A stretch of 64,000 bases of DNA, taken from assembly GCA_008330645.1 (NCBI GenBank), contig VLTN01000001.1, positions 806,001 to 870,000 of the forward strand, given 5' to 3'. Under the pieces are notes generated by a model. That model saw only the letters and a program-made list of their open reading frames with translations, ran no database searches and was not told where the DNA came from. The stretch comes from Cafeteria roenbergensis (taxonomy: Eukaryota; Sar; Bigyra; Bicosoecida; Cafeteriaceae). Shown piece by piece: positions 1-59,967 of the stretch (positions are counted from its first letter, which is position 1; every line of letters begins with the position of its first letter). The translations under genes and the position numbers were made by a program.

Positions 1-3000
1 GCGCGGCGAGGCCCGCAGCAGGAGCCGGCGCGAGGCCGACGAGGCCAGGCAGAGCGCCCGACCCCTTCACGACGCCGGAGAGCGAGCCACGCAGCGCAGG
101 GCTGTGACCGGAGACTGGCGCGAGAGCGGGAGCGCCGCTGGCGGCGGGCAGGAGCTGCGCGTGCGTGTCCCCTCCCAGGCGCACCGCTGCACTCGGGTCC
201 ACAGTGGCGGCCCGTGGCGGGCGCACGTACTCCCTGCTGGTCACCAGTACCAGTGGACCAGCCACGCCCTGCGGCATGCTGGAGCTGATTCCCTCTGCCA
301 AGCCGGAGCGAGCGAGCGCGCGGGCTCGGCGGCGCCATCGCAAAAGCGGCTTCAGAATGGACCACGGCCCAGAGTGCGCGGGCTCGACGCCTGTCGGGCG
401 CCGATGCCGCGAACCGCGCGGCCGGCGCTGGATTTGGAACGAGCCCTCAGGGGCGCTTCCCGCTGGCTGCGCTGGCACAGCAGCACCCGGTGCTGCAGCG
501 GCTGCTGCGCCGGACGCCGCGCTGGGTTCGGTTGCCAAGGCTCCGTCGGCTTCCCCTGCACGCGGCGAGTCGTCCTGCTTGCTCTCTGCAAGGTCGCCCT
601 GCTCCGGAGAGGGAGAGGGCGAGGGCGAGGGCGACGACGAGGCGCGGCGCGCCCCCGCAGCATCGTGGCGGGTCCCATGCAGCCGCGCTGCTGCGCTGGC
701 CGCAACTGCGCGTTCCAGACCGCCGTCCTCGGCGTCGCTCTCTGCGCCCGAGTCGGGGTCGCCGTCTTCGACGGCTGCCTCGTCGTCTGACGCACTGCAG
801 CTCGCGCCGGTGGTGGTGCCGTCGCTGCCGTTTGGCGATGACGGGAGCCTTATGGCCGCAGCTGCAGCAGTTCCGGGTTCACGAAGGTCGCCTCCGAACT
901 CGGCGCCCAGAAGGAGCAAGGAGTTGTCCACGATTGAGCACCGGATCAGCGCTCGGTCGGCCTCCGACGTCACCACCGGATCCCCTCGGGCAAGCGCTGG
1001 CATGCCTTCGCTGCCAGGAGCGACGGTGTGCGCCCGCAGGCCCGCCCAGGACCACAGCGCCCTCGACGCCACGACTGGCAGACTCAAGCGCACGTCGCAG
1101 CCTCCGAGACCCTCCGCCCTTGCAGCCTCCTTTTCCGCCCTGGGCTGCAAGACAAGCGCTGCGGCGCCCGGGTCGCTGGCGACAGCCTCAAAGAAGTTCA
1201 CCCGCTCCATCGACGCATCTCGAGTGGCGCCCTCGCCGCCCGCCTCGGCGGCAGCACTGCCGCCCTCGGGAACAGTGGTCGGAAGAGCAGAGTGAGCGAC
1301 CGCGGTTGGAACGTCCACCGTGGGGCGGCGCTGGGCTTCCTCTGCCCTCCTCGCTATGGCCGAGGCCAGTGGGAGGATGGTCGCGAAGTCGGACTGCCAA
1401 GAAGCGCTCGACATGCCCGTGGCCGTCAGGTCCAGGCAAGCCCCGAAACCAGCAGCCAGGGCGCCAACGTCCACGGCGGGGCGAACGGTCGGAATGATGG
1501 CCGCTCGCCGCAGCGAAGCCGCAACTCGGAAGTCGGCACGCGCCGCAGACGCCTGCGCCGACGGCCCGGAGCCCGGCAGGCCTGACTCGGAGCGCACGGC
1601 CGCACCGATCGTCGCCTTGCGCGCCTCCAAATCGCTGAGGGCGTCACCAACGGGACCAAGCGCAAGGGTCAGCGACGTGTCGGCGTCAGAGGGGCGGTCC
1701 GGCGACGAAGCGACCTCAAGGCCGCCTCGCTGAAGGCTGCCGGGCGCAGGCAGCGTCGGCAAGCCCGGGGGTGGCCCGACGCCGGATGCTGCCCGGGGGC
1801 TGGGGCCAGGCAAGGAGAAGGCGACGCCCGCGCCTGGGTCGCAGAGCGCGTCGCCCCAGACCGCGGCAACGGCGGGCACGTGCTCGCACGCACCCAGCAC
1901 GAGAGCTGCCTGCCGGGAGGGCCCGCTGGTTGCTCGGGTCGAGAGCACGCGAGCAAGCTCTGCAAGGGCCCCCGCTCGCCTCTTGGCCCTTGACCCCGAC
2001 GGCTCGCCGCGCCGAAACGCGTCTGTTAGCGCAAGAATCCAAGAGGCGTCGGCTCTTCCGCCGGCCTCGGCCTCGACGCGTGAGCGCAAAAGCGACCAGC
2101 CGTCGGCCGTTGCCATGGACGCAAACGAGTGGATAGCCCTCGAGGCGGCAGCCAGGGCACCAAGCGCGGCACGCTGGGCTTCCGAGCAGTCGTCTGTAGA
2201 GGCCGACGCGGCGCCGAGCGTGTCGAGAACCGTGGCCACCACGCCGCTCAACTTTTGTTCCGCTGCGACAGCGTGCGCGACGAGGACTGGGTTCAGGCGC
2301 CCCACGGCGGCGTCCACGACGGCGGGCTCTACCGTGTCAGCTCGCCTGAGCGCAGCAACGGGCACAGCCACGGTATCCACCGACGGCTGGCCGCTGGCAA
2401 GGACCACAGCCAAGCGAGCCTCGCCGAGCGCGCGGTCCACGGAGCAGAGCAAGCACGCCGGAGAGCTGCTGCTGCTGCTGCTGGTGCTGGTGCCTGGGCT
2501 GGCGGGAGCCGCTTGGGTGGCGGCGGCCACTACTGACGGCTCGAACGGGCCCGAAACAGTCACGGCATCTCCGACGGCCACTGGCCAGGCCGCGGCCGAC
2601 CGGGACATCCCAAGGGACAGTGCTGCCCTCACGGCGCTCAGCGCGGGCACAAGACCGCCAACGCGGTCCGCGGGCCCCGGGCAAGGCCCGAGACCCAGCG
2701 CCGCCCACGTGCGCTGCAGCAGCCAGTCCCGTCCCCGCAGTGGCAGCGACGTTGCGCCGGACCACGAGGAAACAGCGTGCGCCCAGACGCTTGGGCCGGC
2801 GCCCGGCTGCGACATGATGCGCAGCAGCATGCTTCGAAGCTCCGTGGCCAGCCAGTCCAGCGAGGCGGGGTCGCTTAGGGCTGCTGACCTGGAAGAGGGC
2901 GCCCACAACTGCAGCTCCAGCGCGGACTGCACTGCAGCAGCGGTGACAGCCCCGGCCCGCGCGGTGTGCGAGGAGGAGGCGCTGCCAGCTGTTCCAGCCG

Positions 3001-6000
3001 CTTGCTGCTGGCCCGCGGCAGGGACCGGCGAGGAAGGCGCTGGGGACTTGCTGTCCGGAGGCGTGGCCGTGGCCCCTGCAGCTCCCTTGGGGGCTGCAGA
3101 TCCGTCCGCGGCTGCCCCCCCGGGTGCATCGCCGTCGGAGTCGCTCTCTTTGGCCAGTGCAGCGTGTGCAAGGAGCAGCGACAGCCACGTGGCTGGGTCC
3201 GACGACGCGCCGGCAGGCTGCGGGGGGTCCTCGCCTGCGTCGGGGGAAACAGCGGCGCTGGCCCGGCACACAGCCACCGCCTCCTGAACCGCCGAGAGCA
3301 CGAGGCTCCCCTTGCCTGGGTCTCCCTCGGCAGCACCCGCGGCCTTGGGACTGTCCGTCGCTGCGCCCCCCTGTGCCCTGGCCACGGCGCTAGAGAGCGC
3401 CTCCACGGCCAAAGAGCCGGCACGCAGTGTGGCTGCCGCCTGCGGAAGCAGCATGCTCTCCGCCATCAACACCCGGGTTGGGTGAAGAAGCGCCCCAACG
3501 ACCGCGGCCGCCAGCCCCACGCCCGAGCCTCGCGAAGCCAGCTGGCTCGATGCCATGGGTAGCGTGGCCCCTAGCAACGCCACCGCGACTCGGAGCGACC
3601 GGAACGAGTCTTCGCCTCGGGCATGGTCTTGAGGGGAAGGCCTTGCCGCCACGTGCGGGCAGGCCAGCGCTAGGGCGGACCGCTCCACAAAGGGCGCCGC
3701 GGCGTTTGACCCAGCCGCACCGCAAACGCGAGCGAGCAGCCACGACACCAGCGGCGGGACGCGCGAGCCCCCGAACAGGTCCACGGGGCTGAAGACAGGC
3801 CCCGGCGCGGCAGCTGCCCCCTGGCCGGGCACAGCCAGCAGTCCCCCCACAGCCGCGGCCCCGCAGGTCTGGGCAAGGCCCAGCGCAGCCGCAAGGAACG
3901 GGTGGGCCCCCGCCATGCTTCCGCAGCTCGTAATCGCCTTGGCGAGCGCCCTGCCCGCGGCTGCGCTTGCGCCTGCTTGGGGGCTGCGAGCATGGGCCGC
4001 TGGCTCGTCGCTGTCGGGGGGAGCGGCAGCGCACCCGGCGAGGGCCAGCTGCAGGGTCGCGTCGAGCACCGTTGCGCTGAGGGCTCCCTCGCCGAGCCCG
4101 GGCTGCGGCAGCGCGGCAGGAAGCCACGCCGCGGGCGGGTCGGGCGCACGTCCGGCAGCCCAGGCCGCGAAGGGCTTGCTCACCCCAAAGGGCGACGCCC
4201 AGACACGGACACCGGCCAGGCGCGTGACCGTGCCCCCGGCGCGGTTGGCCCGCACGTTCAAGCTGACAAAGCCCACAGGCAGGCCGGGCCGCCACCCGGA
4301 CTTGACGAGCGAAAACGCGTCCAGGACGCTCACCCAGCGGCCTCGGCCTGCGCCCTCCGGCGCGGAGTCGAGGACGTCGTCCTCGGGCAGGTTCCCGGCA
4401 CCGTCTTCGTCCTCCTCGTCCTCCTCGCCGAGCTCATTCCTCAGGCTCCGGCCGCGCCGTGGGGGGCGGAGGACCACTCGCCGAGAGAAGCGCGCGCCGC
4501 CCAGCGCCTCGGTGGGAAGCACGTCCTGCTCGGGGCCGGAGATGCCAGCGTTTGCGGCCGCCATGGCCAAGGCTCGCGAAGGAGCAACGTCGTTTCCCAC
4601 GATGCCCCAAGTGGCACTGTGGGGCTCCGCTCCGGCCACCAAGTCGTGCTTGTGCGACCAGCAGCTGACCCTGAGTTCCTTGGGGCAAGCGGGGTCATTG
4701 GTCGCCCAAACCTCCAAGCACTCGAAGGCGCCAGCCACCCAGTCTGGCAGCGCGATCACAATCCGGGGCTCCACCGCGGAGCTGTCGGGCCGCGAGAGGG
4801 CGCCGCAGATCCAACCGCGCCGCGTGGACAGGTCCAGCGCCCGGTGAGCTGTTGCCGTGCCCGAAGCGCCTCGCGCCGAGCAGGCCGTTGTCACGTCCAG
4901 GACGGCTCGCGGAACCGGCGCTCTGACGCCGTCGCTGGCCTGGAACGCCGAGGCTTCGAGGTTGCTGGCGACAGTGACAGGCCACACGCAAGGGGTGCCG
5001 TCCTCGGCGTCGTCGGCTTCTGTGGCGTCGCCCTCGTCGGTGGGCTGCCCCGCATCGGCCTGTTCAGCGTCGCCGGCCTCGTCAAGTGCCCGAGGTCTTG
5101 CGGCGTGGAGGGCCTGCGCGGCGGCCACCAAGTCCCCGGTAAGGCTTGAAGCGACCGCGACGCGCTCCGGGCCGTGCACGCCGCGCACGCACTGCAGAAG
5201 CAGCGTGAGCAGCGGGGGAAGCTGAGCCCTGGCCGCGCCGTCGGCAGCCGACGCTGCTACGCGCCGTGCGACAGCCCGGCACTCCCCGACCACGCGGGTG
5301 AGAAGGGTGCGCCCGTCCGCCACAGCGGGCGCTGCTGAAGCACCTGCTGCCGCAGCGCCCGCTGCCGCGGAGGGGGACACGGAGTTGTCCGGCGAGTGAC
5401 GGGCATGGACGGGCGCGTGGGACGGATCGTCCGCCGCCCCGAGCGCCAGTGCAAGAGCGGAGTAGGAGGCCAGCGCCCAGTCGGTGGTGTGGCGCGACAC
5501 CCCGATTACGCCAGTGCCAGTTGCCATTTCGCTCGCGGTGGCCGCCACTCCGTCGGCGCTGTCGGAACCCGCAGCGATGCCGCCGCCGGACTGGCTCGCT
5601 GGCAGCAAGGAGGAGAGCGCCGCAAGCGCTCGGGGCCGCAGCGCGGCGAGGCTGCTGCGCCAGGCGCTGGAAGTGGCGCGGACCTCCACAGCACTGACGA
5701 TGGGGTCGATTGCCAGGCCGTGGCACGTCACGAAGGTGAGAACCTGCCGCTGCAGGTCAGCTGGGATGCGGCCGGAGGCGACATGAGGCGGCAGGCGCCA
5801 AGCCTCCGCTGGTCGCAGCTCGAGCAGGCAGAGAGCGCGGTGAAGCACGCCGCCGGCAAGCTTTGCCGCCGCGCGCTTGTCCGTCGTCCGCCGCTCCGCC
5901 TCCAGGATCCACTCGCGAATGCGACGGGCAGCCGAGAAGGCTTCGAGCAACGCCGAGGGCGGGTTGGGAGGGTGCTGCCGCGGCTGAGAGCGAGTGATGG

Positions 6001-9000
6001 GCTGCTGCCCGGCAGACCTGGCCCAGCGGCGCACGGCTCGGAAGTGCTCAATGGCCTCGGGCAGCGCGTGGGCGTGGAGCAGGAGAACTGCCGCGACCGC
6101 CCGCTCCGCCCGGGCAGCCAGCGCGGAGCGCCAGGCCACCGGCTGCAGCCGGCGCATGTCCTTCGACCGGGCCAAGACTTGCAGCGTGTAGCCCCAGTCC
6201 GGGATGGCAAGGCTTTCGCCCGCTGCGGCCGAGGCCGCAGGGGCTAGAGGAGGGGTGGCCTGCACGGGCGTAGCGGGGGCCGATGCCGATGCCGCGAGCG
6301 CGGAGCTGCCGCCGCCCGTCCCAGGCAGGACGGGCGGGGCGACGCTCTTGGCGCCCAGGCTGTCGTAGCAAGCGGTGGCCAGGTCCGCCAGGTCGGAGCG
6401 CTGGGCAGAGGTGCCGAGCGCCATGGCCGCCGTGAAGAGCCGGTGCTCCTCGCGGTCCAGGTCCGCCTGGGCTGCTTGCGCAGCAGCCGCACATGCGCTG
6501 GCGTCGGCGGGCAGCTGGCCGTCCTCGTCGCTGCTGCCAGGCGTGGCCTGCCTTGCCGACCCTGAATCGCCGCTCCAAGCCCAGCCGCCGCTAAAGAGGT
6601 CCAGGCTCGCCCACTGGTCGGGGGTGATGAGCACCGATGCGGCGTTGGCGCCGGACGCCTCGCTCGTCGCTTCTGTCCCCGCAGCTGCCGCAGATGCCAC
6701 TGTTGCTGCTGCCGCCGCCGCCGCAGCCGAGGCAGCCGCAGCCGCAGCCGCTGTGGCGCTCGCTGCGTCATCGCCGACGGAGGAAGAGCGAGCGAGCGCT
6801 GCCGCCGACACATCGGCCACAGAGAGCGGGGCTGGCGCAGTCTCGATGCCCTCCACGTCGGCGAACTTGGCGGCTGCGGGGAGCTTGCTGGGCAAGTCTA
6901 GCGGGTGGGCCACGAGGTCGCTGGCAGCGGCACGCCAGTGCGAGCCCCGGGCCGCGCTCGTGACTGAACGGTGCCTCGGGGCTGGAGGCGCCGCCAAGAC
7001 CTGCATGCTGGGCGCCTCGCCCGACTGCGCAGCGCTGGGAGAGAGCATGAACTCTTGCTCGCTCGCCATGGCTGCCGCGCCCGAACCGCTCGGCGAGTGA
7101 TGCGGAACCACCCCGCCGGCGTTGCCGGCTGCCGAAACTTCTGCAAGCGCGCGGGCCAGCGAGCGGGCGGTCTTTTGAGGCGTGCCCCCAGCAGCCGTGC
7201 TCTGAGGGCGGGCTTCCGGAGACACCGACTCGCTGGACATGCCCGAGGGCAAGGCGAAGAGCCGAGGGGTCAGCGTCACGTCGGGAGCCGGGCGGCCCTC
7301 ACCGTCGCCGGCGTCTTGAGCCTCGGAGGCCGCTGCACCCGCAGCGGCCGAATCGGCGCCCGTCGCCCCAAGCTGCTGTGACGGCGCATCGGCATCGCCG
7401 AAGCGGCCGTCGCCCTCGTCCTCGTCTGCCCAGGCGTCCAGGCTCCGCCTCGGGCCGACCCCCCGACTGGCGCCAGGGTCGTCCTCATGCGCGGCCGTCG
7501 CGCCGAGAGCGAACCCAGAGGGCACCAGAGGTGTGACCCCGGCAGCCCCGATCAGGGGCGAGTCTGGGACCATGTGCGGGCTGGCCGAGCCGCGGTGGCC
7601 TCGCCACGAGGCCGAGCCTCCGGCCCGCCACGCGCTGCCAGGGGACGCCGTTGAACTCGAGGCGGCGTCGCGACGCTGGGCTCTGCTGCCCGCGGCCCCA
7701 CTTCGAGGCGGGGTCCGCATGGCGTACGCGGGCACGGACGCGCCAGTCGAGCTCGAGCGGGCCAGGGGGACAGCCGAGGAGCCGAGCCAGAGCTGCCCGG
7801 GGTCCGGCATGGCGCCGCGCCCTGCCGGGCAGAGCAGCGGGGAGGGCTCCACAGCGGCTGCCCCTGTCGCTGAACGACGGGGCGAGGCCGCCCCTGCCTG
7901 GGCAGCCTGCGAGCTCCCGGAACTCTGGGCCGAGGCCAGCGCTGCAGAGCGCATTGCTCGGGAGGCCTCGGCAGCCGCTGCCGCCCGCTTCACTAACGCG
8001 GAGTGCCGCGCGCGCCGCGACGCGCGGTCGGCCGAGGCGAGCTGCGTGAACCATTCCGCGCCCGCGGGGGCATCGCTCGCTGCCTCGGCCTCGCGAGTGT
8101 TCGCCCTCTTCGAGCCGCTGTCCTCGTCGTCCGAGCCACTGTCGCTGCCCGCGGCGCTGGCCGTCCTGCGCGCTGCCGCGGCGCCGGCAGATTGCGCATC
8201 CAACAGCGCCTTGCATCGCCTGGCCGTGGCTGGGGCAAGCTCAGTTGTTGCCCCGACGAGGGCTGCGGCAATCGACCCGGTTGCCGACGCCAAAAGCCTG
8301 GCAGCCGTGACGGCGGCTGAAGCATGCGCCTCCGCTGAGTCGCCCTCGTCGTCCCGAGGCAAGGAAGCCGCGCACCGCACGACCAGCCCCGCCTTGAGCA
8401 GCGCAGCGCGAGCATCGGCAGCGGAGCGCCGCTCGTCGCCCCCAGAGTTCTCTATGCCACCAATCACCACCGTCACGCTGTCGGCGAGAAGCGTCACAGG
8501 CTGGCCCGGCCAGATATCCCCGTCCGGCGCCCCGTCGGGCGATGCGGTTGCAGAGTTGGCGGAATCGTCCGCGCTGGCCATCCAGCCGGGAAGGGGCGTC
8601 AAATCGGCGGGCCCGACGCCCTTGGACGCGAAACCAAAGTCTCCTCCAGCAGGGTCGCGGCTGCCCTCCGTCGCGCTGGGGTTGAGCGGAAGGAGCCGCG
8701 CCAGCCACGGGCTGAGCCATGCCCCCGCCCCCGACCGGCACGCCTCCTCCGTCTCGCGCGTGAGGGCAACGGCGTCCTCCACACTGATCCAGCGGGGCTG
8801 CGCCACCGGCTGCAGCCGCGAACCGCTGCGAGTCCTGGGGCGGCCGTCGGCGCGCTCCCCGCCGCTGTGGTCGGCCTCCTGCGGCCACTCCCAGTCCGCC
8901 AGCCCCTCTCCCTCGTCGGAGTCGGCGTGGCCGGCAGTGCCGGAGAGCGCGCGCTGCCGTGCGCGAGAGCGCCTGCCGTCGCCGGCGAAGCCTCCGGGCC

Positions 9001-12000
9001 CCTCGGCCTCGGCGCCCTCGGGGGCCGCACTGTCCAGCTCCACGTCTGACAGCTGGGCCTGCGACAGCGCCGAAGGCGACCGCAAGCGCGAGTGCCGCAG
9101 GGGCTGCCCGGCCGCATCCGCAGCAGGTGAGCCGGTGGCTGGAGCAACAGCAGGCAGGGCGACGCCTGCGCGGGGCGGGTCTGGCGCGTCCGTCGCCTCG
9201 CCCGCGGCCGCTTGCGCCGCACTCGCACCGGAGGCGCGCTGCTGAGCCGCCGCACGCGCGCCCGCTGCGACCGTTGCATCGAGCCACTGGTGCGACACCC
9301 CCGCGGAGGAGAGCAGCAAGAGCGCGTTGGGGTCGCGGGACATGGGCACAATGCGGTCGGGGGGCGTCACGTACGGGCCGCCCGCCGGGGTGGCCGGGGC
9401 AGCCGCGCGGGGAAGTGGGGTTTGGTGGTCGGCCGCAGACGGCGCGGCAGCCGTGTCAGCTGGGGAGGTGTCGGGGTTGCCGGCCCCAGGCAAACGGGAA
9501 GGCAGCGCCGGCGGCGAGCGTGTTTCGGGCAGTGCCAAGGAATCTCCCCGCGGCCGCCGGCGGCGCTGCCGCCCTCTCAACGACGCGGACGATGCTGCCT
9601 GAGTCAGCGTGGAGGGGCTCGAGCGCGGCGCGCTGCCCACGAGGTGGCGCCCGGCTGGGGTCGACGGCGGCAAGCGAGACATGGCCGGGGTCCCAGGGCG
9701 GGCCGCTGATGAAGCGAGCCCAACCGGCTGGTTCTGGCGCACCGGCTGGGCGACGGAGGGCAGCCCGCCGCTGCGCACGCTGTCGGCGTCCTCCGGGCGG
9801 GCCGCGGCCGGGGCCGCCGGGGTCGCGAGCAGACCGCCGTCCGAGGCCCATGCCGCGGACGCGGCGTCTGTCGCGGTGCGCCGAAGCTTGCTGGGAAGCA
9901 CAGCCACCCACACGCTCCTGCCGAGCGAGGCCGCCGCCCCGGGCGCCTTGAGGGCCACCGTGAGAGCCTCGGCGCCGCGAGACGACAGGGTGATGGTGAC
10001 GCCGTAGGAGATATTGTCCGTGGCCAGGGGGCGGCTCCACGCGCTGGAACGTCCCTCCTGCGCCTCTCCTGCGTCAGCGCCATCAGCCTGCTCGGCCGCA
10101 GCCCCGTCTCCGGGAGACGCCGCCTCGCTGGCACGTTCCTGGGTCGGAGCGTCCTCGTCGCGCTCGGCAGGGGGCGGGAGCCGCGGCCTGAGCGACGGCT
10201 GGTGCCACGGCCCCGCTCTCGCCGGGCGGCTCGCCGCGGCTGCCGCAGCCCGCTCAGCTCGAATTCTCGCGGCCCCGGCTGGCTCGTCGAACTCGAGGCC
10301 GTCACCAACCACACCTCCCATGCCGTGGGACAGAGAGCGCGTGTCGTGGGCGCTGCTCGCAGCACCTTCCCGCAGCATGGCGAGGTCGGCCCCGCGGCCT
10401 CGGATGGGCTTGGGGTTGACGATGACGGCGCCGGTGGGAGGCGCGGAAGCGACCGACGGGCGCGACCACGGCGACCTTGCCGTCCATACGCCAGTGCGCG
10501 CCGCAGGGGCGTGGGGCGGGCACGCGACGAGAACGAGCGGCGCCTGAGGGGACAAGGGCACGCCACCCTGGCCCGCGTGCCGCGCCACTGGCCACGCCGC
10601 GCTGCTGGCAGTGCCGCCGACCGACAGTGCCCAGAGCGTGTCCCGGCGCATCGGGCCGTCCGGCAGGCAGACGATGGACGTCGCCCCGCGCACGGGGAAC
10701 GGTCGCGGTGGCTTGCCCTCGGCCCGATCGCGAGACGCGTGAGCAGCCTCGCGAGGAGGCGAGAGGGCCCCAGCGGCAGCGAGGGACGACGCGCGCGAGT
10801 GCGCCGCGTCCAGCGCCGCCAGGAGCCGCAGGGAGGCTCCGGCGCGCTTGCTCAGCTCTGGCCCGACGGACAGCGCTGCAGACAGCACGGGTGGTGCCGT
10901 TGCTGCCGCCAGCAGCGCCGCCAAGAGTGGCGTCGCGGACGCTTCGGCGGAGGGCGACGTAGCCGCCGATGCCTGCTTGACGCAGCACCGCGCCGCCGAC
11001 CCTACAGACTCGAATACCCTGCGGAGGGGCTCAGCGGCCAGCGGAGCCGACTCGCGGGACGCACAGTTGGCGTCCCTGCACAGGCTGACGGCATCGCCCA
11101 CAAGCACCGCCGCTGCGAGCCCGAACACGCGCGACGGGGGAGGCGACCGCGACGCGCCCGCAGCCGCGGCTGCTGCTGCCGTGGCGCGATCCAGGACCTC
11201 CCTGGCAGCTTCGGCGACGCGCGGCCAGTCGTCTCCGGAGAGCGCCGGTGCTGCCGACCACGCCGCGAGCGCGCTGGCCGTCCCGGAGGACAGACTCCCA
11301 GCTGCCGCCCGGAAGTACCCAGGCAGCAGCGCGGGGAGGCCAGGCAGCACGCTGGCCGGCCTGGGCCCGCCCGGCCTCGCGCACACGGCGAGAGAGACGC
11401 GGAGGCACGACCACAACTGCGCCTCGGCAAAGTCCGCAACTCCTGCGCCAGTGGTCTCGGCGAGGGCTGCCCGCACCAGGCCAGCGCGGACCGCACCAAG
11501 CTCGCAGACGAGCGCGTTGCAGCGAGCAAGGGCAACCTCTGCTGCGCGCGCGAGGGCCCTGGCCGCGGGGGCAGGAGCCCGGGCGGCCGCGCGGGCGTCG
11601 CGGCCTGGTCCGACCGCTACGGCAGCACCGCCAGCGGCAACCACCCCTGCCGCCTGAGTGCCCGCATGGCAAGCAAGGGTCGCGAGCGCCCGAAGCGCGG
11701 GAGCCCAGACGAGCCGATCGCACGAGGCCTCTCCGCCTGCGTCGGCGGCTTCGAGGGCGGAGTGCCACGCGGAGGGGGGCAGCGGCAGCACTGCTCTGGC
11801 TGGCCACAAGTCCGCTTGCGCTGGAAGCGGCACAGAGCACGCTGCCAGCTCCGCATTTGCTTCTGCCCTGGCGTGGGAGGGCAGCCGTCGGACCGCGCCA
11901 AGCAGGGCGGCGGCAAATGCCAGCGCTGCAGTTGCCCTGTCGGACCACGCCGACGACTCCGCGCGCGCGGCAAGCGCTCTCGCCACCTCCCCCGCCGCTG

Positions 12001-15000
12001 CGGCGATTCCGCTCGCCAGTCGCGCGGGCGGAAGCGCGGCTGGAGGGCCGGATTGACAGCTCGCGCAAGCCTGTGAGGCTGCCTCTGCCGCGGCTCGCAT
12101 TAGCAGCACGCGCCCGTCCAGCCGCTCCGGCGAGCCCCGCCGCTCCGCGCGCCTGGCAGCGCCCAGGGCTGCCGGGCCGAGCGGGCCTGTAGCGGGGTGG
12201 CTCTGCCCGCCTCCGTCCCTGCCTTCCTCGTCATCCTCCTCGGCGCCTGAGCTCTCTGGGTCTGCCCCGACGCCGCGGGTCCGCCGTGCGCCTGCCGCCG
12301 CAGCAGCGCCTCGACCGCGAATGTCGTCAGAGTCAGAGTCAGAGTTAGAGTCAGAGTCGCTGCTGCGTCCCGACACGGAAAACTCGCCGGAGGGCTGCCA
12401 CGCCGCGCGGCCGCCACGCGGCCGGGCTTGGCTTTCGAGCCTGCTGCAGGGTGGCAGCGGGGCCCAGAGCTGCTGGGGAAGGTTGGTCGAGAGCAGAGGC
12501 GAAGCCGTGACGCTGAGCCACATTGCCGGCGCGGCCTCCCGGTCTGGTGAGTGCAGCAGCGGCGACGGCGGGCAGCCTTGGTCGGCAGAGCTGTGGGCAT
12601 CCCTCTGCCCGGCCTTGGCGTCGCGAGAGCCTGCTCCGGGCGAAGCAGGCTGCGACCCGCTGCCGGCGCACGCTTGCGCTGCCTGCGAGCCCGGCTGGCG
12701 GGGCCTTGTCCAGCACACCCAGCTCTCCAGCTCAGCGTCGGCCCGGATTCGCGGCCGCCCGACACTCTCGGCAAGCACCAGGGTCGCGGCCACGCCCGCA
12801 AGCTGCTGCTGCTGCGGAAGCTGCTGCTGCTGCTGCGGAAGCTGGCTCTGCGTGGGCGATGCTGGTTCTACGCGAGCGGCGCGCAGCTGTCCCCCAAAGA
12901 TGCAAGCGCGGACGCTTGAGGCCGGGCCGCTGGAGGCGCGAGAGGGCACACGATCCTCGGCGATGACCACCGTCCCGCAAGGGGCGCAAACCGCTCGCCC
13001 GGTTGCCAGCCCGCAGCCGGAGGCGCTGAGAGACGCCCCGCTGGTGCCGCCGAGCAGGCCGAACAAGGGCGGGCGGCGCAGGGTGCGAGACAGCGCGGAG
13101 TCGGCACGCTCCAGGGACCCGGGCGTCCGAGGAGCCCGAGGAAGAGGGCCCCACATGGCCGCCGCGCGGCGTACGGCCTCCCTTGCCGCTTCAGATTCGG
13201 CTGGGGACACCGCGAGCAGGGGGAGCGACTGCGCCTCGAACGCCTCCGCCGACCGCCCGCTGGTGCCGCGGGGGACGGCGGGGCACCGCGCCAGCACGGG
13301 CACGGAGCCTCCCTCCGCCTTGCCGGATGCGGCAGGCGGCACTGGCAGCAGCAGAGGCACGAGCTCTCCCGGCTCCGCAGGCTCGACGCCGACCCAGTCC
13401 CCGGGCCGAAACGAAGGAGGCGCTGCACCCGGGCCTGGGCCTGGACCGAGCGCGGGAGCTCCCGCCGATGCGTCGCACAGCTGCCAGCCCCGCACGAGGT
13501 GGACGCGCAAGCGCGCTACCGGAGCGAGCGTGCAACCGGCCGACCCGCCAGGCGCCTCGCGGTCGCCGCCGTCGGCAGCCCGCCAGACGGAGAGGACTGC
13601 AGCGCAGGGCCGGGACACTGCGATGGACCAGCCGCTGATGGGGGTCCCGGACGGGCTCCCCGGCCCTGCTGCCGAGCCGGACTGGACGGGGAACAGAACA
13701 AGGTCCGAAACGCTGGCGGTGCCGAAGCGTCGTGCGGGCCCAGCTGCTGCGGCCGCCACGGCCAATGGCGCCGGCACGGCCACTCCGCGCTCCGGCGCAG
13801 GGTCTTCCGCAGGTGGCATCGCCGCCCCAGCGCCCACCCGCAGGAGCGCGCAGCACGCAGTCCCGGCCTCTGCCCACAGCAGCGCGGGTGGGTCCGCCCC
13901 CGCGAGCCGCACCGAGCCCGAGTCCGCTGAGGCTGCCACTGCCGACAATAGCGCATGCGCTGCCTCCAGCGGGGCCGGAGCATGCGGGCGGGCACCCTGG
14001 GTTGCGCCTGCCTGAGCCTCCGCCCCAGGCGGGCCACCGGTCGGGCCTGAGGTGGCCGCTCGCACGTCAGCGCAGTCTCTTTGCTCCCGAGGCTGCGCTG
14101 GCCTGCTCCTGCTGTCGGCGTTGCCGGATGCAGCCGCGGCCGCCGCTGCCGCGGCCAGCGACTCTGCAACGGGCATGGCCAGCTGCAGGCACCCGCCAGG
14201 CCCGGAGAGCAGCACGGCCGCTCGGAGAACTGCAGAGCTAGCGCCCGGGTCAGCGGCCAAGAACGGCCCCGCGACAGCCACCACGGCGTCGGGCTTGACA
14301 TGGGGCCCTGAGGAGCCAGTGGCCGCCACGACCCAGCCATGCGCGATGCTGCACACGTCGGCCGCGGTCAGCCCTGGTGCCGACCCTGCCCGCTCCCCCG
14401 CGGCGCGAATCGTGCCCCCGCTGCACAGAACAGAGAGCGATGAGCGGGCCGCCCCTGCCGACACACTCAACGACGCAGCGACGGCGCCGGATGGCAGGGG
14501 CAGGACGGCGAGCGAGGGGGCCGCACTTGCCTTGGAGGCGCCACCCGACGGGCCGGCTGGGCCGCCATGCTTGGCGGGCGATGGCGCTTCCGCTGCTCCA
14601 ACCACCGGAGATGAGGTCTGCGGTGCATGCTGTTGTTGCTGCTGTTGTTGCTGCTGCTCGGGCGGCCAGCCGACGGCCGCCGCCGCGTCGGCCGAAGCTG
14701 GCCCCCCTGCCGCCGCGACGAGGTCCATGAGCGCCGCTGTGCTGGACCGCGCCGGGCGGGCGAACTTTGAAACTGCGTTTGCAATTGCGCGGGCCGTGGC
14801 GTTGCGGCGGTCGGGTGTGGTGTCGACGCCCACCAGAGCGTCGGCAACGGCGCACACCGCAGCCAGGTCCACTGCCCTGCGTCCGCCCAGCAGAACTTGA
14901 CACGCGACGTCAACCACCTTGAGCTCGGCTCCCCTCCCCAGCGGCCGCGACTGGCGCCGGGCCGGGGAGGAGCGCGAGGCCAGGCGAACGCACGCGCGCA

Positions 15001-15723
15001 GGACTGGCGACGACGGCACCGCCCGGCCGTCCCGGGCTGCCCCACGCAGCGCGCGGTTGAGCTCGGACAGCGCAAACGACACTCCGCTGCTATCGTCCTT
15101 GCGCGTGGCTTGCCTGCGGGACACTTGGGGCGACGGGACGCGCACGCGCTCCACTCTGACAAAACACCAGCGTGGCAGTTGCCGCAAGTCCGAGCGCGGG
15201 CCGCGAACGGCTCGCAGAAGCTGTGAACAGACCCCTCGCGAGAGTGGGCTCACCTCAGATTACGGAGGGCCTGAGCTACGCCGGGGGGCAACTCCTCCGG
15301 CTCGGCTCCGCCTGGCGAGCCCGGCCACGCCCGGGAGCTCACGAGCGGGGCCGCAATCGTGGCCCCCAAGCTTCCCTCGGCGTCCGACAGAGGCGCGTCG
15401 TCTGGCTCGCAGCAGTCCAGCTTGGCGGCGGCCTCGACCCCGGCAGCGGCGCGTGTGACGAGCGGCTCGTGCGTGCGAGCCCAGTTCAGAATGGGAGCAG
15501 CGGCGGCTGGCCACTCCGCCGTCGTGCCCGCGGGGTCCTGGGCGGCCGGACGCAGCGCGGCACCCAATGCACCCCCCTTGTCCGCGGACGGGGCCAGGCC
15601 GAGGGCCGCGAGCTGCTGGCGGAACTCGGCATCCGCGGCCACCGGAGCGACCGCCTCCGCCTCCCGCGCAAGAGCCTGTCTGAGCCCGCGCAGGACCCAT
15701 CCCGGCCGCTCTTGTTGGATCAT
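1..15723 (-). CDS. Giant protein of unknown family, 5' part, at least 5,208 residues
   Basis: Partial gene running off the left edge. Exon 1 is 15254-15723 (ATG at 15723, opening MIQQERPGW); intron 15156-15253 (98 bp) starts GTGAGC and ends GTCAG; exon 2 is 1-15155 and stays open with no stop to the window edge. The join keeps frame (codon AG|A). The other two minus frames are broken many times over this stretch while this one never is, which is strong evidence that it is coded. The protein is rich in Ala, Ser, Gly and acidic patches. It has glutamine runs near residues 330 and 930, an SD/SN repeat near 1090 and a serine run near 4380. Around residues 3546-3660 (roughly 4660-4995) there is a more ordered stretch with patterned Trp and hydrophobics (for example WICGALSRP, VIALPDWV, LEVWATND) that loosely recalls a galactose-binding/discoidin-type sandwich; this is a guess. 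No catalytic domain is seen; one may lie in the missing C-terminus. Divergent from katanin. Confidence 0.9.
12323..12360 (-). repeat. SD/SN dipeptide-coding repeat in the giant gene
   Basis: Hexanucleotide repeat TCTGAC (minus strand) with one AAC variant, coding for alternating Ser-Asp around residue 1090. A phosphorylatable acidic tract is the likely protein feature. Confidence 0.85.
12801..12843 (-). repeat. Two CAG runs coding for polyglutamine in the giant gene
   Basis: Two blocks of CAG codons, five and four long, separated and preceded by CTTCCG, giving a QLPQQQQQLPQQQQL-type protein segment near residue 930. Confidence 0.85.
14631..14658 (-). repeat. CAG/CAA run coding for polyglutamine in the giant gene
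   Basis: Nine glutamine codons mixing CAG and CAA in the giant protein at about residue 327, followed by His. Codon mixing makes it more stable than a pure CAG tract. Confidence 0.85.
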
Positions 15724-17915
<2,192 letters not shown>

Positions 17916-31533: not shown

Positions 31534-34500
31534 TCACTTGAGCGCGGCGCACTTGCTCCCCTTGGTGAACGCGCAAGCCGTGCAGATGGTAGCCGCCATA
31601 CCAGTGTGCGGCGGCACCCTGGCACTGCAGCGAGCGCAGTTGTTGGCCTTCGAGAAGGTGCAGACGTTGCACAAGGTGGCGGGGCGCCGCGGCCCCGCGC
31701 CGGGCCGCTCGCAAATGAGGCAGACCACGAGGCCGCCGCGCGAGCAGGCCTGGCACAGCAGCGCGGCCGTGGTGTTCATCATTGTGAAGATCGGCTTGCC
31801 GCACCGCACGCCTGTCCCATCCCTTGGCGGCTTGGACTGCGTCGACACCTGCCCGAAGCAGTGGAACCGGCCAATGCGCAGCGAGAGCAGGATGCGGCCG
31901 GGCGACGCGGCCAGCGTGCGGCAGACGGCAACCGCGCCAGCGCAACCGCCCGGCAGGACGGCGAGCCCTCGCGGCCCGACCCCCACAACGGCCAAGTCCG
32001 GAGCCGCTGCCCCTGCGCCGCCGCTGGCCGTGTCTGGGGCAGCTGTGCCTGCCCTCACGCGCACCCAGCCGCTGCCCTCCGCCTCCCTCCCGGCCTCGGC
32101 CCGCGGCGCCACGACGCGGGCCACGGGCAGCCCGGCAACCGACGGGTGGCCGCCCTCCGCGCTACCCGCGTCCAGCGGCAGCGGCCCGCAGGCCGCCTCC
32201 GTCACGCTGAGAAAATCGGTCCAATGCGGGCTGTCTCGCCCCGCGAGCACCGCCGCAAGCCCGGCGTCGGGACACCGCTCGAAGGACGCGCCGCTGATGC
32301 GCCGCCAGGCCATAGATTCCGCCCTGCTGAGGGACCCTGTCGACGTTTGAATCAACAGGTCGGCTTGAGGGATCGCGAGAGTGTTCCCGCTGATGTCCTT
32401 GAGCAGAGCCAACGACGTGAAGCGCGCGCCCTGCTCCACCTCGAGCGGCGCCACCGGCAGCGACGCCCACGGGTCAGCCGCCTCGGCGACCACGCGGACG
32501 GGCACGGCTCCCACGGCCACTGGCGCCCCGCCCAGCGTGATGACGCACGCATACGCGCCAGCCACCACTGGCACAAACCACAGAACTCGTCCGAGCCACG
32601 CCGCCCCTTTTGGCCTCTGAGCGCCGCCGCCCAGCGACGCGCACTCGCCCCGGCCCCCCTCGGCCGCGTCGGTGGCCAAGCCCACGGTGGCCAGGTGGCG
32701 CGTCGGGCCCTCCAGCACCCCCCCCACCTCCACCGAGCGCGGGATCGGAATCGGCTCGCCGTCCGCTCCCAGCGCCAGGACCAGGAGGCGGACTGGCTGG
32801 CCCGCGACCGCAACGGACACCGAGTCCGCCGGGCCGTGGATCTCCCACCGAGCGGGCGCAAAGAGCGAGCCGGCGCTCGCGGAGTGCGCGGCACGCAGGC
32901 CGGGGCCGTCGGAGCCCGCCGACGACAGCGGCTCTGCCGACGGGGCCTCTGAACCGGCTTGCTCCGAGACTGGCACGGAGCCGCGAGACGAAGGCAATTC
33001 CCCGTCCGCCCCGGTGCCTACAGTGGCGGCGTCGTGGTCTCGGCCGAGGGAGTCGCCCGCGTCGCTCCAGCCGTCGTCCCACGTCTGCCCTGCGGACGTT
33101 GCCCGGCGAAGCAGCTGCGGACCGATTCCGCGCTGGAGCATGGCGGTGTCGTCGGTGGCCGCGTCTGCCGCGGACTTGCCGATAAAGTGCCCACGCTGGT
33201 AGCCGAGCATGTCCTCCACAGCGGCGAGCGCCCCCGCCATGCGCGCCAGCATCCGCCGCGCCTGTGCCTTGGACCCGCTCTCCGCGCCGCCCTCGAGCGA
33301 CGCCCCGCTCCTCGCGCCGCCGCCAGCGCCGCCGCCGCCGCCGCCAGCCGACGCTGCCTCTGACGAGAGTCGCAACGCCTCTGCAAAGGCCTTCGCGCTT
33401 GACACCTCACGCCCGCCGTCCTCCTCCTGTGAGAGGCTTCCCGTCAGCGAGCGGTCGCAGTTCGCGGGCAGCGATCTGCACGTGCCGTCCTTCGCACCCG
33501 GCCCAGTCTCCTCCCCAAGCGGGCCCTTGCCACTCGCTGCCGCCACGGTCGCTGTCCAGCTGCCCGCATCCCCGAGTGGCTCCTCGGCCTCGTCGTCCTC
33601 GGCCTCATCCCTGGCCGCCGAGCCGACGGCCGAGCCGCTCGCCTCCAGCGCGGCGATGCAGAGCTGCCCCATTGATGCGCCGACGTCCTCGGCCGTGCCC
33701 GCGATGATTGCCGGCACGATGAGCTCCAGCGCGCTGGACGACCCGTAGACCGCATCGTACATGGTGAAGCTCGCAGCCATGTGCGCCACGGCATCCGCCT
33801 TGCCCTGCCGCGTGCCCTTGCGCAGGGCGCAGCGGGCGAGCGAGCAGCTGAGCCGCGCGACCAGGGGGTGGACGGGCGCGAAGCGAGCTGCGATGGCGCG
33901 CGCCGCCGTGTACAGCGCCTCCGGCCTGTCGAGGCCGTGATGGCCCCGCGACACGCCCGCTCCCGCGGGCAGGGCCGACAGAGCGGGCAGAGGCTCGCCG
34001 GAAGCCAGGGCGTCTTCCAGCGCCTCGGCGGCCACAGCCAGCGCCATCGCGCGAACCAGGCCGGCCAGAGGGGGTGCCCTGGCAGCTGCAGAGACGGCGA
34101 CCTGCGCAGCCTTGCCGCATGCTCCCTCCCGCCGCAGAGCCTGGGCGAGGCGCGTGGCCACTTGGGCGTGCTCAACGGACCGCTCGCCAATGGTGGACGC
34201 CACGAGCGCGGCCAGCTCCGTGAGCCAGCCGGACCCTGCCACTCCCGCCCGGAGGGAGAGGCGCCCGCCATCGGCGCCCCACGCTTGTCGCGCGCCGGCC
34301 TCCGACGAGCTCCCAGCTGCCAGTGCGGCTTCGGCTGCCGCCGCCGCTGCCGAGGCAGCCGCTGACGCTGCCGACGCCCCTGTCACCGTTGCTTCGTGGC
34401 GGGGGGCGCCCTCGCCCCCGGATGCGTCCGAGCACGCATCGTCTGACCCGGAGGCCTCGCCTGTCGCTTGCTCCAGGGCAGCAAGGGCATCGGTCTCGTC

Positions 34501-37500
34501 GAACACCGACCTGGTCCGGGTGCTCAGCGTCAGCGACGCGATCCCGCCGGGGCTGGCGTGCTCGGAAGGGTCGTCGCACGTGTCCCCTGCGGCGTCGAGG
34601 ACGAAGCCCTCCTCGTCGGATTCCGGCCCGGCCCTAGCCCCGTCCGTCTCTGCCACGAACGGCTCCGCGCACTGGAGCACCGCCTCGCTCGCCACGAGGC
34701 GGCGGACGTCCTCCCGGCTGATGCCAAAGCCCGCTAGCACGGCCAGCCGCGCCAGCAGCGGCAGCTTTCCCACGCCCTCCAGCCTTCTCATCTGCCGGCC
34801 GGCGGCCAGCGCGTCGCGCTCTGCCGACGACAGCAGCTCAGCGAGGTCGAACTTCTCGTCCACGGCGCAGGGCACCGCCTGAGCCCAGAAGGCGTCCGCG
34901 GCTGGCGACTCCCCAAAGGCCACGTTGAGGAGGCCTCGCAGGGCGCGGAGGGCCCACTTGGGGCCTGCAGATGCGGCAGGCGACGCACTAGGCGGCGCAG
35001 CATCAGCGCCCACGGGGGGCAGGAAGCTGGTGGAGGGGGCGGCGAACGCCACGCGCCTCGGCCCGGCCCCTGCGCTTGGGGCCGTCACCTCGTCGTCGCT
35101 GCCGCCGCCATGGCCGCCGCCAGAGCTGGGTTCGGCATGCTCGGCAGGGTCGGGCCCTGCCACCGAAAGCGCGGCGTCTGGTGCCTCGAGGGAGGCGAGG
35201 GCGTTGCGCAGGCGGGCCAGCAGCAGCACTCGAAGCGTTCGCGCGAGCACCTCGACGAGCACGACGGACCGAGCCCAAGGAGACCGCAGGCACGCACGCA
35301 GCTTGCCTAGGCGGCGCAAGTTGATTCCTGACGCGTGAAGCAGCGGCGGCAGCTGCACTGGGTCGGTCACAGACGCCTGGCCGGAGTCCAACGCAGCTGC
35401 GAGCCTGGGCACTGCCGTCCGCGAGATGTGCGCAGCCAGCCACTCCGCTCGCGCCTCGTGCCTCTGTCGGTCGTGCCCGCAGTCCGGCGCCGCCGAGGCC
35501 TTCGTGTCGGCGCACCTGGCGCATTTGCCGAAGCCAGAAAACACGTCGGAGCTCATGGGGCGCGAGCACATGGCAACTGCCTCCGGGCGCTGCAGCGCCG
35601 TCAGGTTCCACGCCATTCCCACGACCAGCACTGCGTCTCCGCGGATCACCCGGCCGGCGAGGCGCGAAGCGCGCGCGTTGACGGGGGGGCGGCGGACTGC
35701 CGCTGAGGCTGCCCTCGCGACCTCCTCCGGCGGCGCCACGAACCTGCCTCCGTCCGAACCAGCAGCGGGGCCGTTGTGCTCCGCGGATGCCGCAGCAGCC
35801 GCTGCAGCGTCCCGAAACGCTGCCTCCGCTTCTCCGCTCAGCCGCCGCTCCTGCCTGCTGCAGATTCCCCACCCGAGCGGCAGCGTGGGGAGCACTGACG
35901 ATCCGCACAGCCCCGCCGGCCGCGACACCCCCTCCACCAGCCGGCCCTCCGCCTTTGCCTGCCACTCCGCCACCAGGGACTCGTCGGCCCGCTGCTCGTC
36001 CGCCTCCCCGGGCGCGAAGCCGGATGCCAGCAGGTCCGACTCCGCTTCGGCGTGCAGATGGGCCGATGCTGACTCGAGATCCTCGGCAGACGCACCCCTC
36101 GACACAAGGCCCCCCTCCCAAGGGCCTTCGCCGCGCCGGTGGGCGGCCTGGAGCAGCACGATGTCCGCCACGGATGGCAGCACGGCTCGCGGCCGAACGC
36201 CCGCGGCAGCAAGCGCAGCCGGGGAGGCCAGGCCGGCGCCCATCGGCTGCCGCTTGACCAGCAGCATACCGCACGCGAGAGGCACCCTCACCATGGGGGA
36301 CCCGCCAGCGTCGTCCCCCTCGCGTCCCGATGACGTGGCGAGAGAGGCCAGGAGGGTGCGAGCCACGCGTGCCCACGCCGGCCCCCTGGCAGGCCCGGCC
36401 CCGCCGTCAGCCACCGCGTGCCGCTCCACGCAGCGCCGCCGGGCATCAGCGGGGACGAGCAGTACAACGGAGCACCGGCTGCCAGTCGGCGACGACGCCG
36501 GCGCCTCGGCTGGGAAGAGGCGCGCTGCGTCCAGCACGTACGAGTGGCTCTGTCGGCCGGGCCCGCGCCGCGTCTCGTGCGCCTCGAGGTCGATGGGCCC
36601 CCACAGCAACCTGCTGGTCGGTGTGTCAGGGAGGCGGTAGCCAGGAGGGCCGCGGCTGGCTACGGCGTCGGGTTGATGCCCGCCCAACTTTGCCGCATCC
36701 TCCCCACTGGCGCTGCCGTTGCTGCTGCCTCCGACAGCAGTGCTGCTGTCGGTGTCGTTGTGCTTGCCAGCGCCAGGGTCGTTAGTGGTGCCGGTGCCGC
36801 CCCCGCAGTTTGAGCCGGACGCCCCACGCGACTCGGCTGCGCTTCCTGGCCCAGCGGAACCCACCGAGCTCTCGTAGGACCTTCCCGCCGATGCGACAGC
36901 GGAGCTGGCAGCCGTCCTGGCGCTTTCCGTAGCGTTGGCGGGGCTGCCGTCGCTTCCAGCGACCCGGGCGGCTTCGCCGTCGAAGAGCGACCGGGCGCTC
37001 GCGTCCACGGCAGCGAGGCGCGCCAGGCCAGCACCAGCCGCACCGCCCGCTGCGGAAACGACGCGAGGGAGCAGTAGCTGGCGCAGCCGCCCTGCCCATG
37101 CCGGGGGGCGGCAGGCCACGTTGTGCGGGCCGATGTTGAGCGTGTCGCAGGCTTGGCGCAAGGCCGACACCAGCTGGGGAGAGCTCGCAAGCACGTCAGC
37201 GCCAGCGTTGGCTGACCCGTACGCAAGCGTGGTGGGACCCACGGGCAGAATTGAGCAAGCCAGCAGGCGCTGTCCCAGGTAGTCCACCGTGGCAAGCAGC
37301 GGAATCCCGAGCGAGAGGCCCACGCCTTCAGCGCCCGCCCCAGCCCCGGCGGCGCTGGTCATTGCAGCTGCCGCAGCCAGTGCCTGGACCGAGGTCAGCT
37401 CGTGCTTGGCTGCCTTGGCAGCGAAGGCGTCGCCTCCGTAGAGGCCATGCGCATCGATGGCGAACTTGAAGAATATTCCAGAGTCTCCCGGCCCAGGCAC

Positions 37501-37950: not shown

Positions 37951-38228
37951 CTTGGAGGCTGCAGCGCCGCTCCTGGTCCGCGGCACCGCTGCACACGAGT
38001 GACTCGGTCGATTGCCGTGCGCAGTGGGAGCTTGGGGGGCGCTGCGGGGGGCGCGTACAACTGTTCGAACTCGAACCCCTGTGGCCGCAGGGGCAGACTG
38101 CGCAATGTTCTTCTTCAACCTATATCTCTACACGCACGCAAACCAGGCAGAGATCCTATCGAACCGAGGACCCAATCACCGGATCAGCGCAGCCCCGTTG
38201 CGGCTCACACGCAGCATTGCTGGCTTGC

Positions 38229-59595: not shown

Positions 59596-59967
59596 GCTGT
59601 GCCAGGGTGTTCCCGGAGCGGGGGGCGCGCAAGGCTGGCGAGAGCTGTCCTCGGTCACATGCATTGCACGGCGGGCACCGCCACAGGCGCCAGCTCCGTC
59701 GTCGTGGTGCTGTTTCGACGCCGAGCGCTGCCTCTGCCTCAGGAGCACGTTTGCGCATATCGCACCCCAAGCCCCCAAGGACACCCAACCGAGTCGCGGC
59801 CCGCCAAGGTCAAGCACCAAGACCGCTGCTTCTTTCCGCCCCGTGCGCAGCCAGCCCGGGCGTTTTGCTGCGTATTTTGTGTTGCCGGAGGTTGGAGCGT
59901 GTGCGTGCGCAGAGCCGCGAGCCACGAACCGTCGCAAAATTTCGCTCACACCCTCCGACCGGGCCGG
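59596..59967. other. Intergenic, TFIIS 3' to right-edge gene 5'
   Basis: 372 bp between tandem plus-strand genes. It holds a short T-rich stretch (GTATTTTGTGTTG, about 59872-59884). It must contain the terminator of TFIIS and the promoter of the next gene. Nothing else is seen. Confidence 0.4.

What the first reader, a model, noticed from the sequence alone, without database searches (positions are those of the whole stretch)
1..15155. A single exon of more than 15 kb, open off the window edge
One minus-strand frame has no stop from 15155 to 1 (5,051 codons) while both other minus frames are interrupted many times. With exon 1 the protein exceeds 5,200 residues and still lacks its C-terminus. 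I recognise no family over this length apart from a faint galactose-binding-like stretch near residues 3546-3660. Such a large, mostly low-complexity protein with scattered ordered islands could be a new giant scaffold or a large E3-type protein whose catalytic domain lies further on.
Basis: seen in the sequence. Interest (0 to 1): 0.8.

Follow-up and report, generated by a model that had tools for sequence, protein, structure and literature searches.

The report
Giant HECT ubiquitin ligase, 33-kb exon
The long open frame is the first half of one predicted gene for an 11,186-residue ubiquitin ligase of the marine flagellate Cafeteria, a very large member of a known enzyme family whose catalytic part sits, as read, 2,065 residues before the end instead of at the end.

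Summary
Joined to the DNA left of the window, the minus-strand frame stays open for 11,064 codons, to a stop at window -17,933. With exon 1 and a 98-nt GT-AG intron the model has 11,186 residues, most of them in one 33,091-nt exon. The guess of an E3-type protein with its catalytic domain further on is borne out: a HECT domain (Pfam E 9.4e-37) lies at residues 8573-9121, cysteine at 9090. The genome is Cafeteria roenbergensis/burkhardae, probably strain BVI. Giant HECT frames are common there: 13 of 19 found reach 3,000 codons, a HUWE1-like one 12,725. Giant HECT proteins are published for Toxoplasma and Plasmodium, so size alone is not new. The odd feature is 2,065 in-frame codons after the HECT domain; 17 of the 19 frames stop within 16 codons of the HECT match. 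The continuation looks coding, but no transcript, relative or usable structure model was available. One LamG/ConA stretch passes Pfam's cut-off when its piece is scanned alone; the galactose-binding guess is unconfirmed.

The parts
15254..15723 (-). Exon 1: ATG at 15,723, 470 nt, 156 codons plus 2 nt (residues 1-157, the last one split by the intron)
   Evidence: sequence and translation; no Pfam match up to E 5
15156..15253 (-). GT-AG intron, 98 nt, phase 2
   Evidence: GTGAGC...TGTCAG read directly; joins two frames in phase; not checked against RNA
1..15155 (-). In-window part of exon 2 (residues 157-5209). The exon continues 17,936 nt left of the window to the stop at C1:788,065-788,067; whole exon 33,091 nt. 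The HECT domain (C1:794,263-795,909) and the tail lie in the part outside the window
4136..4828 (-).
   Evidence: by eye only; no Pfam or PDB sequence match, poor model, no paralogue in the genome at E 0.01 (residues 3576-3842)
1328..1648 (-). Residues 4660-4766: stretch modelled as four helices at low confidence, perhaps part of a solenoid (inference)
   Evidence: AlphaFold single sequence, block pLDDT 36-54
15724..16031 (.). 308-bp gap between the giant gene's ATG and the first in-frame ATG of a divergent katanin-p60-like frame; presumably holds both promoters
   Evidence: coordinates; promoter role inferred, start codons not verified

Best explanation
The frame is one protein-coding gene of Cafeteria roenbergensis/burkhardae: C1:788,065-821,723, minus strand, two exons in the model, 11,186 residues. 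It encodes a HECT-type E3 ubiquitin ligase. Shown by computation: the uninterrupted frame; the HECT domain (residues 8573-9121, with an insert of about 190 residues in the N-lobe); a cysteine at 9090 aligned with the active-site motif of HECTD3, SMURF2 and HUWE1; a LamG/ConA-type match at 6837-6877. By eye: a Tudor-like segment near 5961-6012 and a DOC-like stretch near 3600-3830. Inferred: an E2 passes ubiquitin to Cys9090 as a thioester. The long upstream part, small ordered islands on low-complexity linkers, holds substrates and partners, and ubiquitin is moved to a substrate lysine. The gene probably grew by low-complexity inserts within and between domains, as its sister HECT genes seem to have done. 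The 2,065-residue continuation after the C-lobe is probably translated. If so, the free C-terminal carboxylate that can serve in HECT catalysis is not at hand, and an acidic side chain of the acidic stretch right after the C-lobe (net -13 over residues 9122-9171) would have to stand in.
For: HECT PF00632 at 127.7 bits, E 9.4e-37, cut-off 23.9. PDB matches HECTD3 E 6.3e-19, SMURF2 1.1e-18, HUWE1 2.8e-17, the active-site motif aligned without a gap at the cysteine (that these are the catalytic cysteines is recalled). Open frame of 11,064 codons against 71-122 stops in each other frame. Codon model trained on residues 1-9100 without the tested neighbourhood: this frame scores best of six in 43 of 45 body windows and 8 of 9 tail windows; the best likelihood in each of ten 600-nt windows beyond the stop (-3.75 to -4.09) is below the mean of body (-3.66) and tail (-3.63). 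Same habit in the genome: 13 of 19 HECT frames found have 3,000 codons or more. LamG PF13385 29.0 bits against cut-off 27.6 when a 651-residue piece is scanned alone. The Tudor-like segment has one other match in the genome, 33% identity, E 9.9e-5, in a frame that by eye also holds a ubiquitin-specific-protease sequence. [quoted passage not shown]
Against: No RNA, protein or relative from another species was available. An in-phase, stop-free intron of about 100 nt would go unseen roughly one time in four or five (my estimate), so one hidden intron is possible. The first part of the HECT N-lobe is matched only weakly (3-7 bits in the five alignments shown). In the longer piece the LamG match was below its cut-off (24.0 of 27.6 bits). 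Two body windows and one tail window (9801-10000) favour another frame. 17 of 19 HECT frames here end at the domain, which speaks against the tail being part of the finished protein.
Confidence: 0.88

Rival explanations
1. The protein ends just after the HECT C-lobe as in other HECT ligases. The 2,065-codon continuation is removed by a splice or an early polyadenylation, or belongs to a separate downstream gene in the same frame.
For: 17 of 19 HECT frames found in this genome stop within 16 codons of the HECT match. The two with a similar C-lobe end by eye (L009, L024) stop after 16.
Against: No stop in the frame for 2,065 codons while the other five frames hold 13-26 stops; tail windows favour the same frame 8 of 9. 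A second frame, L022, also runs on, by eye 229 residues past its C-lobe.
Confidence: 0.25
2. The frame holds several genes or many introns that happen to be in phase and free of stops.
For: Genome average is 1.67-1.89 introns per gene (PMC6972860, passage).
Against: A 98-nt intron has roughly a 20-25% chance of being in phase and stop-free (my estimate), so several unseen ones are unlikely; this frame is preferred in 51 of 54 windows; separate genes would need stops.
Confidence: 0.06
3. It is an orthologue of human HECTD3 or HERC2, grown large: DOC domain plus HECT, with a HERC2-like acidic tail.
For: HECTD3 is the best PDB match (71.5 bits; 66.5); the C-lobe end resembles HECTD3 by eye; human HERC2 has an acidic disordered tail (PMC11577452, passages) and HECTD3 a DOC domain (PMC13196369, passage).
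Against: HECTD3 leads SMURF2 by only 0.8 bits and 2.2; no DOC or RCC1 match; no tree was built.
Confidence: 0.2
4. The HECT domain is inactive and the protein is a scaffold.
For: Large insert in the N-lobe, weak match of its first part, no free C-terminus near the C-lobe if the tail is translated.
Against: Cysteine at the catalytic position and surrounding motif kept; inserts within HECT domains are seen by eye in sister frames too (L022, L023/L024).
Confidence: 0.1

Closest known systems
Giant HECT proteins of Apicomplexa (largest protein of Toxoplasma gondii, 17,226 aa; largest of P. falciparum, PF3D7_0628100)
   Same: HECT domain in one of the largest proteins of a protist (PMC10993292, passages)
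   Different: Sequences not compared here; other phylum; position of their HECT domains not checked
HUWE1-type frame in the same genome (L006, 12,725 codons)
   Same: Giant open frame with a HECT domain, same genome
   Different: Clear HUWE1-type HECT (E 2e-94) and stop right after the domain, one residue after the match
Human HECTD3
   Same: Best PDB match of the HECT domain; a DOC plus HECT plan would fit if the DOC guess is right
   Different: 861 residues against 11,186; DOC not demonstrated here; lead over SMURF2 is small
Human HERC2
   Same: Large HECT protein with an acidic stretch after the C-lobe (PMC11577452, passages)
   Different: HERC2 tail is about 40 residues; no RCC1-like repeats found here

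Membership tests
HECT E3 ubiquitin ligases | HECT profile match over the curated cut-off | tested here: met
   127.7 bits against 23.9, profile 37-305 of 306
HECT E3 ubiquitin ligases | Catalytic cysteine in the C-lobe | tested here: met
   Cys9090 in LPQAHTC aligned with HECTD3, SMURF2, HUWE1
HECT E3 ubiquitin ligases | Complete N-lobe including its first segment | tested here: inconclusive
   Segment FEGEGGLDAGG present upstream of the insert but scored only 3-7 bits in the five alignments shown
HECT E3 ubiquitin ligases | HECT domain at or near the C-terminus (customary; HERC2 has a short tail; not taken as defining) | tested here: not met
   2,065 in-frame codons follow; 17 of 19 frames here do end at the domain
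HECT E3 ubiquitin ligases | Ubiquitin thioester and ligase activity | not testable with these tools
   needs protein
HECTD3 | HECT domain groups with HECTD3 | tested here: inconclusive
   71.5 bits against 70.7 for SMURF2; no tree
HECTD3 | DOC domain | tested here: inconclusive
   no Pfam match up to E 5, poor model
Large HERC (HERC1/HERC2) | RCC1-like repeats | tested here: not met
   no match in 11,183 of 11,186 residues; E up to 1, up to 5; HMMER's filters drop most matches above about 0.1
HUWE1/Tom1/UPL | HECT domain closest to HUWE1 | tested here: inconclusive
   HUWE1 66 bits against 71.5 for HECTD3 and 70.7 for SMURF2, too close to decide; another frame, L006, is the clear HUWE1-type

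The most novel reading that the evidence does not exclude
A HECT ligase whose catalytic domain is internal: 2,065 translated residues follow the C-lobe, starting with a strongly acidic stretch that supplies the carboxylate which the protein's own C-terminus can give in other HECTs, and then carrying a further, partly ordered regulatory or targeting region.
Probability: 0.5. Interest if true: 0.55.

Novelty: new member of a known kind. Interest (0 to 1): 0.4.

Why it matters
A 33,091-nt coding exon and an 11,186-residue ligase are extreme, and many HECT genes of this genome seem to share the habit: median HECT frame 4,197 codons (19 frames) against 757 for 119 kinase frames listed (kinases are shorter proteins anyway, so this shows only the scale). 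That makes Cafeteria a place to ask why giant ligases tolerate or use low-complexity growth, alongside Apicomplexa. The internal HECT domain, if translated as read, would test directly whether HECT catalysis needs a nearby free C-terminus.

Tried and rejected
Structure prediction of residues 3560-3835 and 4660-4994, each as a single sequence, gave mean pLDDT 34 and 37; too poor for a fold search, so none was run. No relatives from other species were added: the tool says the genome has no relatives in its held set, and I did not scan the viral, prokaryote, phage, plasmid or E. coli collections, because a eukaryotic host gene was not expected there. Rfam (gathering threshold) and tRNA scans of the window found nothing. 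The 18S search failed twice on the server; the organism was tested instead with published TATA-binding-protein primers. PUA_4 (E 0.0034, below cut-off) and DUF5714 (0.097) were set aside as weak. PDB matches of residues 5210-8541 (9 up to E 1) all overlap a natural run of eight histidines and were discarded. Residues 1-2657 were not searched against the PDB. The DOC-like stretch, the LamG segment and a tail stretch (residues 9240-9480) have no other match in the genome at E 0.01. One search read minus-strand loci in the wrong orientation; one search replaced it, and only the primer lines are used. A tree of HECT domains was not built.

Full report
What was claimed and what is there. The minus-strand frame is open from window 15,259 to base 2. 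The window is C1:806,001-870,000 of a 36,303,456-base, 167-contig genome. I fetched C1:776,001-806,000 and joined it to the window: the frame remains open to a TGA at window -17,933, 11,064 codons in all. The proposed exon 1 (ATG at 15,723) joins in phase through a 98-nt GT-AG intron. The resulting model has a 33,091-nt second exon and 11,186 residues. The other five frames of the spliced coding sequence hold 71-122 stops each, so the openness is not a mere by-product of the exon's 74% G+C.

Whose gene it is. Three primers published for the TATA-binding-protein gene of Cafeteria roenbergensis strain RCC970-E3 (PMC6972860, passages seen) match one locus with 0, 0 and 1 mismatches. Assembly size and contig number are close to strain BVI in that paper (36,327,047 bp, 170 contigs, 70.1% G+C). 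I take the organism as C. roenbergensis (C. burkhardae in later papers, listing), probably strain BVI. The assembly authors report 8,483 proteins for BVI, so the gene may already be in GenBank as a prediction; I could not check.

What it encodes. Pfam scans covered 11,183 of 11,186 residues (the three codons at piece boundaries were left out). Two matches pass a curated cut-off: HECT (127.7 bits, main stretch residues 8808-9121) and Laminin_G_3 (29.0 bits against 27.6, residues 6837-6877; the same segment scored 24.0, below the cut-off, in the longer piece). What looks like the N-lobe's first segment lies upstream of an insert of about 190 residues and aligns only weakly. Against the PDB the HECT part matches HECTD3, SMURF2, HUWE1 and others, with Cys9090 at the catalytic position. 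HECTD3 leads by 0.8 bits in one search and 2.2 in the other, so I do not name a subfamily. A Tudor-like segment (residues 5961-6012; the name is by eye) has one other match in the genome at 33% identity, in a frame that by eye also holds the cysteine box of a ubiquitin-specific protease (box recalled, no profile run). But no test supports it: no Pfam match, no PDB match, poor model.

Giant HECT frames are common in this genome. A search with the HECT profile gave 21 matches, which I count as 19 genes because two pairs share contig and frame (the tool calls its counts lower bounds). Open frames range from 544 to 12,725 codons, median 4,197; 13 of 19 reach 3,000 and 7 reach 5,000. The largest has a HUWE1-type HECT (E 2e-94), 12,725 codons against 4,374 residues in a HUWE1 chain of the PDB. 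For scale, 119 distinct kinase frames among the matches listed by the same tool have median 757 and maximum 3,666 (not all matches were listed). Giant HECT proteins are also in print: the largest proteins of T. gondii (17,226 aa) and P. falciparum contain HECT domains (PMC10993292, passages), and E3 ubiquitin ligases are named the commonest architecture among eukaryotic proteins over 5,000 residues (PMC11573180, passages). The finding is therefore a member of a known kind.

The odd part: the tail. In 17 of the 19 HECT frames the stop comes 1-16 codons after the HECT match. The exceptions are L022 (277 codons after the match, by eye 229 after its C-lobe) and this gene (2,065). The continuation has no in-frame stop while the other five frames have 13-26. 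A codon model trained on the body prefers this frame in 8 of 9 tail windows, close to 43 of 45 in the body, and the likelihood is lower beyond the stop. So the tail is very probably coding. That it is in the same protein is likely but not shown, since a splice could still end the protein at the C-lobe. The first 50 tail residues carry a net charge of -13. [quoted passage not shown] the -4 phenylalanine requirement I know only from recall and from the title of Salvat et al. 2004 in that paper's reference list. HERC2 has a much shorter acidic, disordered tail (PMC11577452, passages). These give a testable mechanism for an internal HECT domain.

Limits. No RNA, no second species, no reliable structure. 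One in-phase intron could hide in 33 kb. On print: two searches could have shown HECT ligases of Cafeteria or other protists together. One listed paper, PMC6027436, holds both 'Cafeteria' and 'HECT'; the passages seen concern virophages and a mimivirus HECT protein, not the flagellate's own ligases. Of the other six papers I opened passages of one (PMC11573180); of the 49 papers only 20 were listed. Searches searched HECT evolution, exon length, giant proteins and HECT C-termini; I found no statement on this gene in what I saw. Papers opened, passages only: PMC6972860, PMC9547173, PMC11577452, PMC10993292, PMC11573180, PMC13196369 and PMC6027436. The library holds open-licence papers only.

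Noticed in passing
16032-17915 (+): Katanin-p60-like AAA ATPase frame (AAA 6.8e-39, KATNA1_MIT, Vps4_C) divergent from the giant gene, 308 bp between first ATGs.
   Followed up: partly
31534-38127 (-): 2,197-codon open frame with a CLU (clustered mitochondria) domain, E 2.2e-24, and a sub-threshold eIF3_p135 match.
   Followed up: partly
L006 (C17:276398-277318): HUWE1-type HECT at the end of a 12,725-codon open frame, larger than the gene in the finding.
   Followed up: partly
L022 (C1:1157132-1157359): HECT C-lobe with, by eye, an insert after the catalytic motif and 229 residues after its end: a second frame with a post-HECT tail.
   Followed up: partly
L016 and L021: HECT domains with unusual residues around the presumed catalytic cysteine (FCRVCTSEL and TAMICDKTL where most have HTCF or similar), possibly altered activity.
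   Followed up: no
L030 (C76:13331-13567): Frame of 1,233 codons, by eye a ubiquitin-specific protease, sharing the Tudor-like segment with the giant ligase.
   Followed up: partly
59596-63999 (+) and 38229-41024 (-): Further long open frames, 1,468 (open at the window edge) and 931 codons, without Pfam match up to E 5.
   Followed up: no
L002:3183-3206 (residues 7474-7481): A natural run of eight histidines in the giant protein, which draws spurious matches to His-tagged PDB chains.
   Followed up: yes
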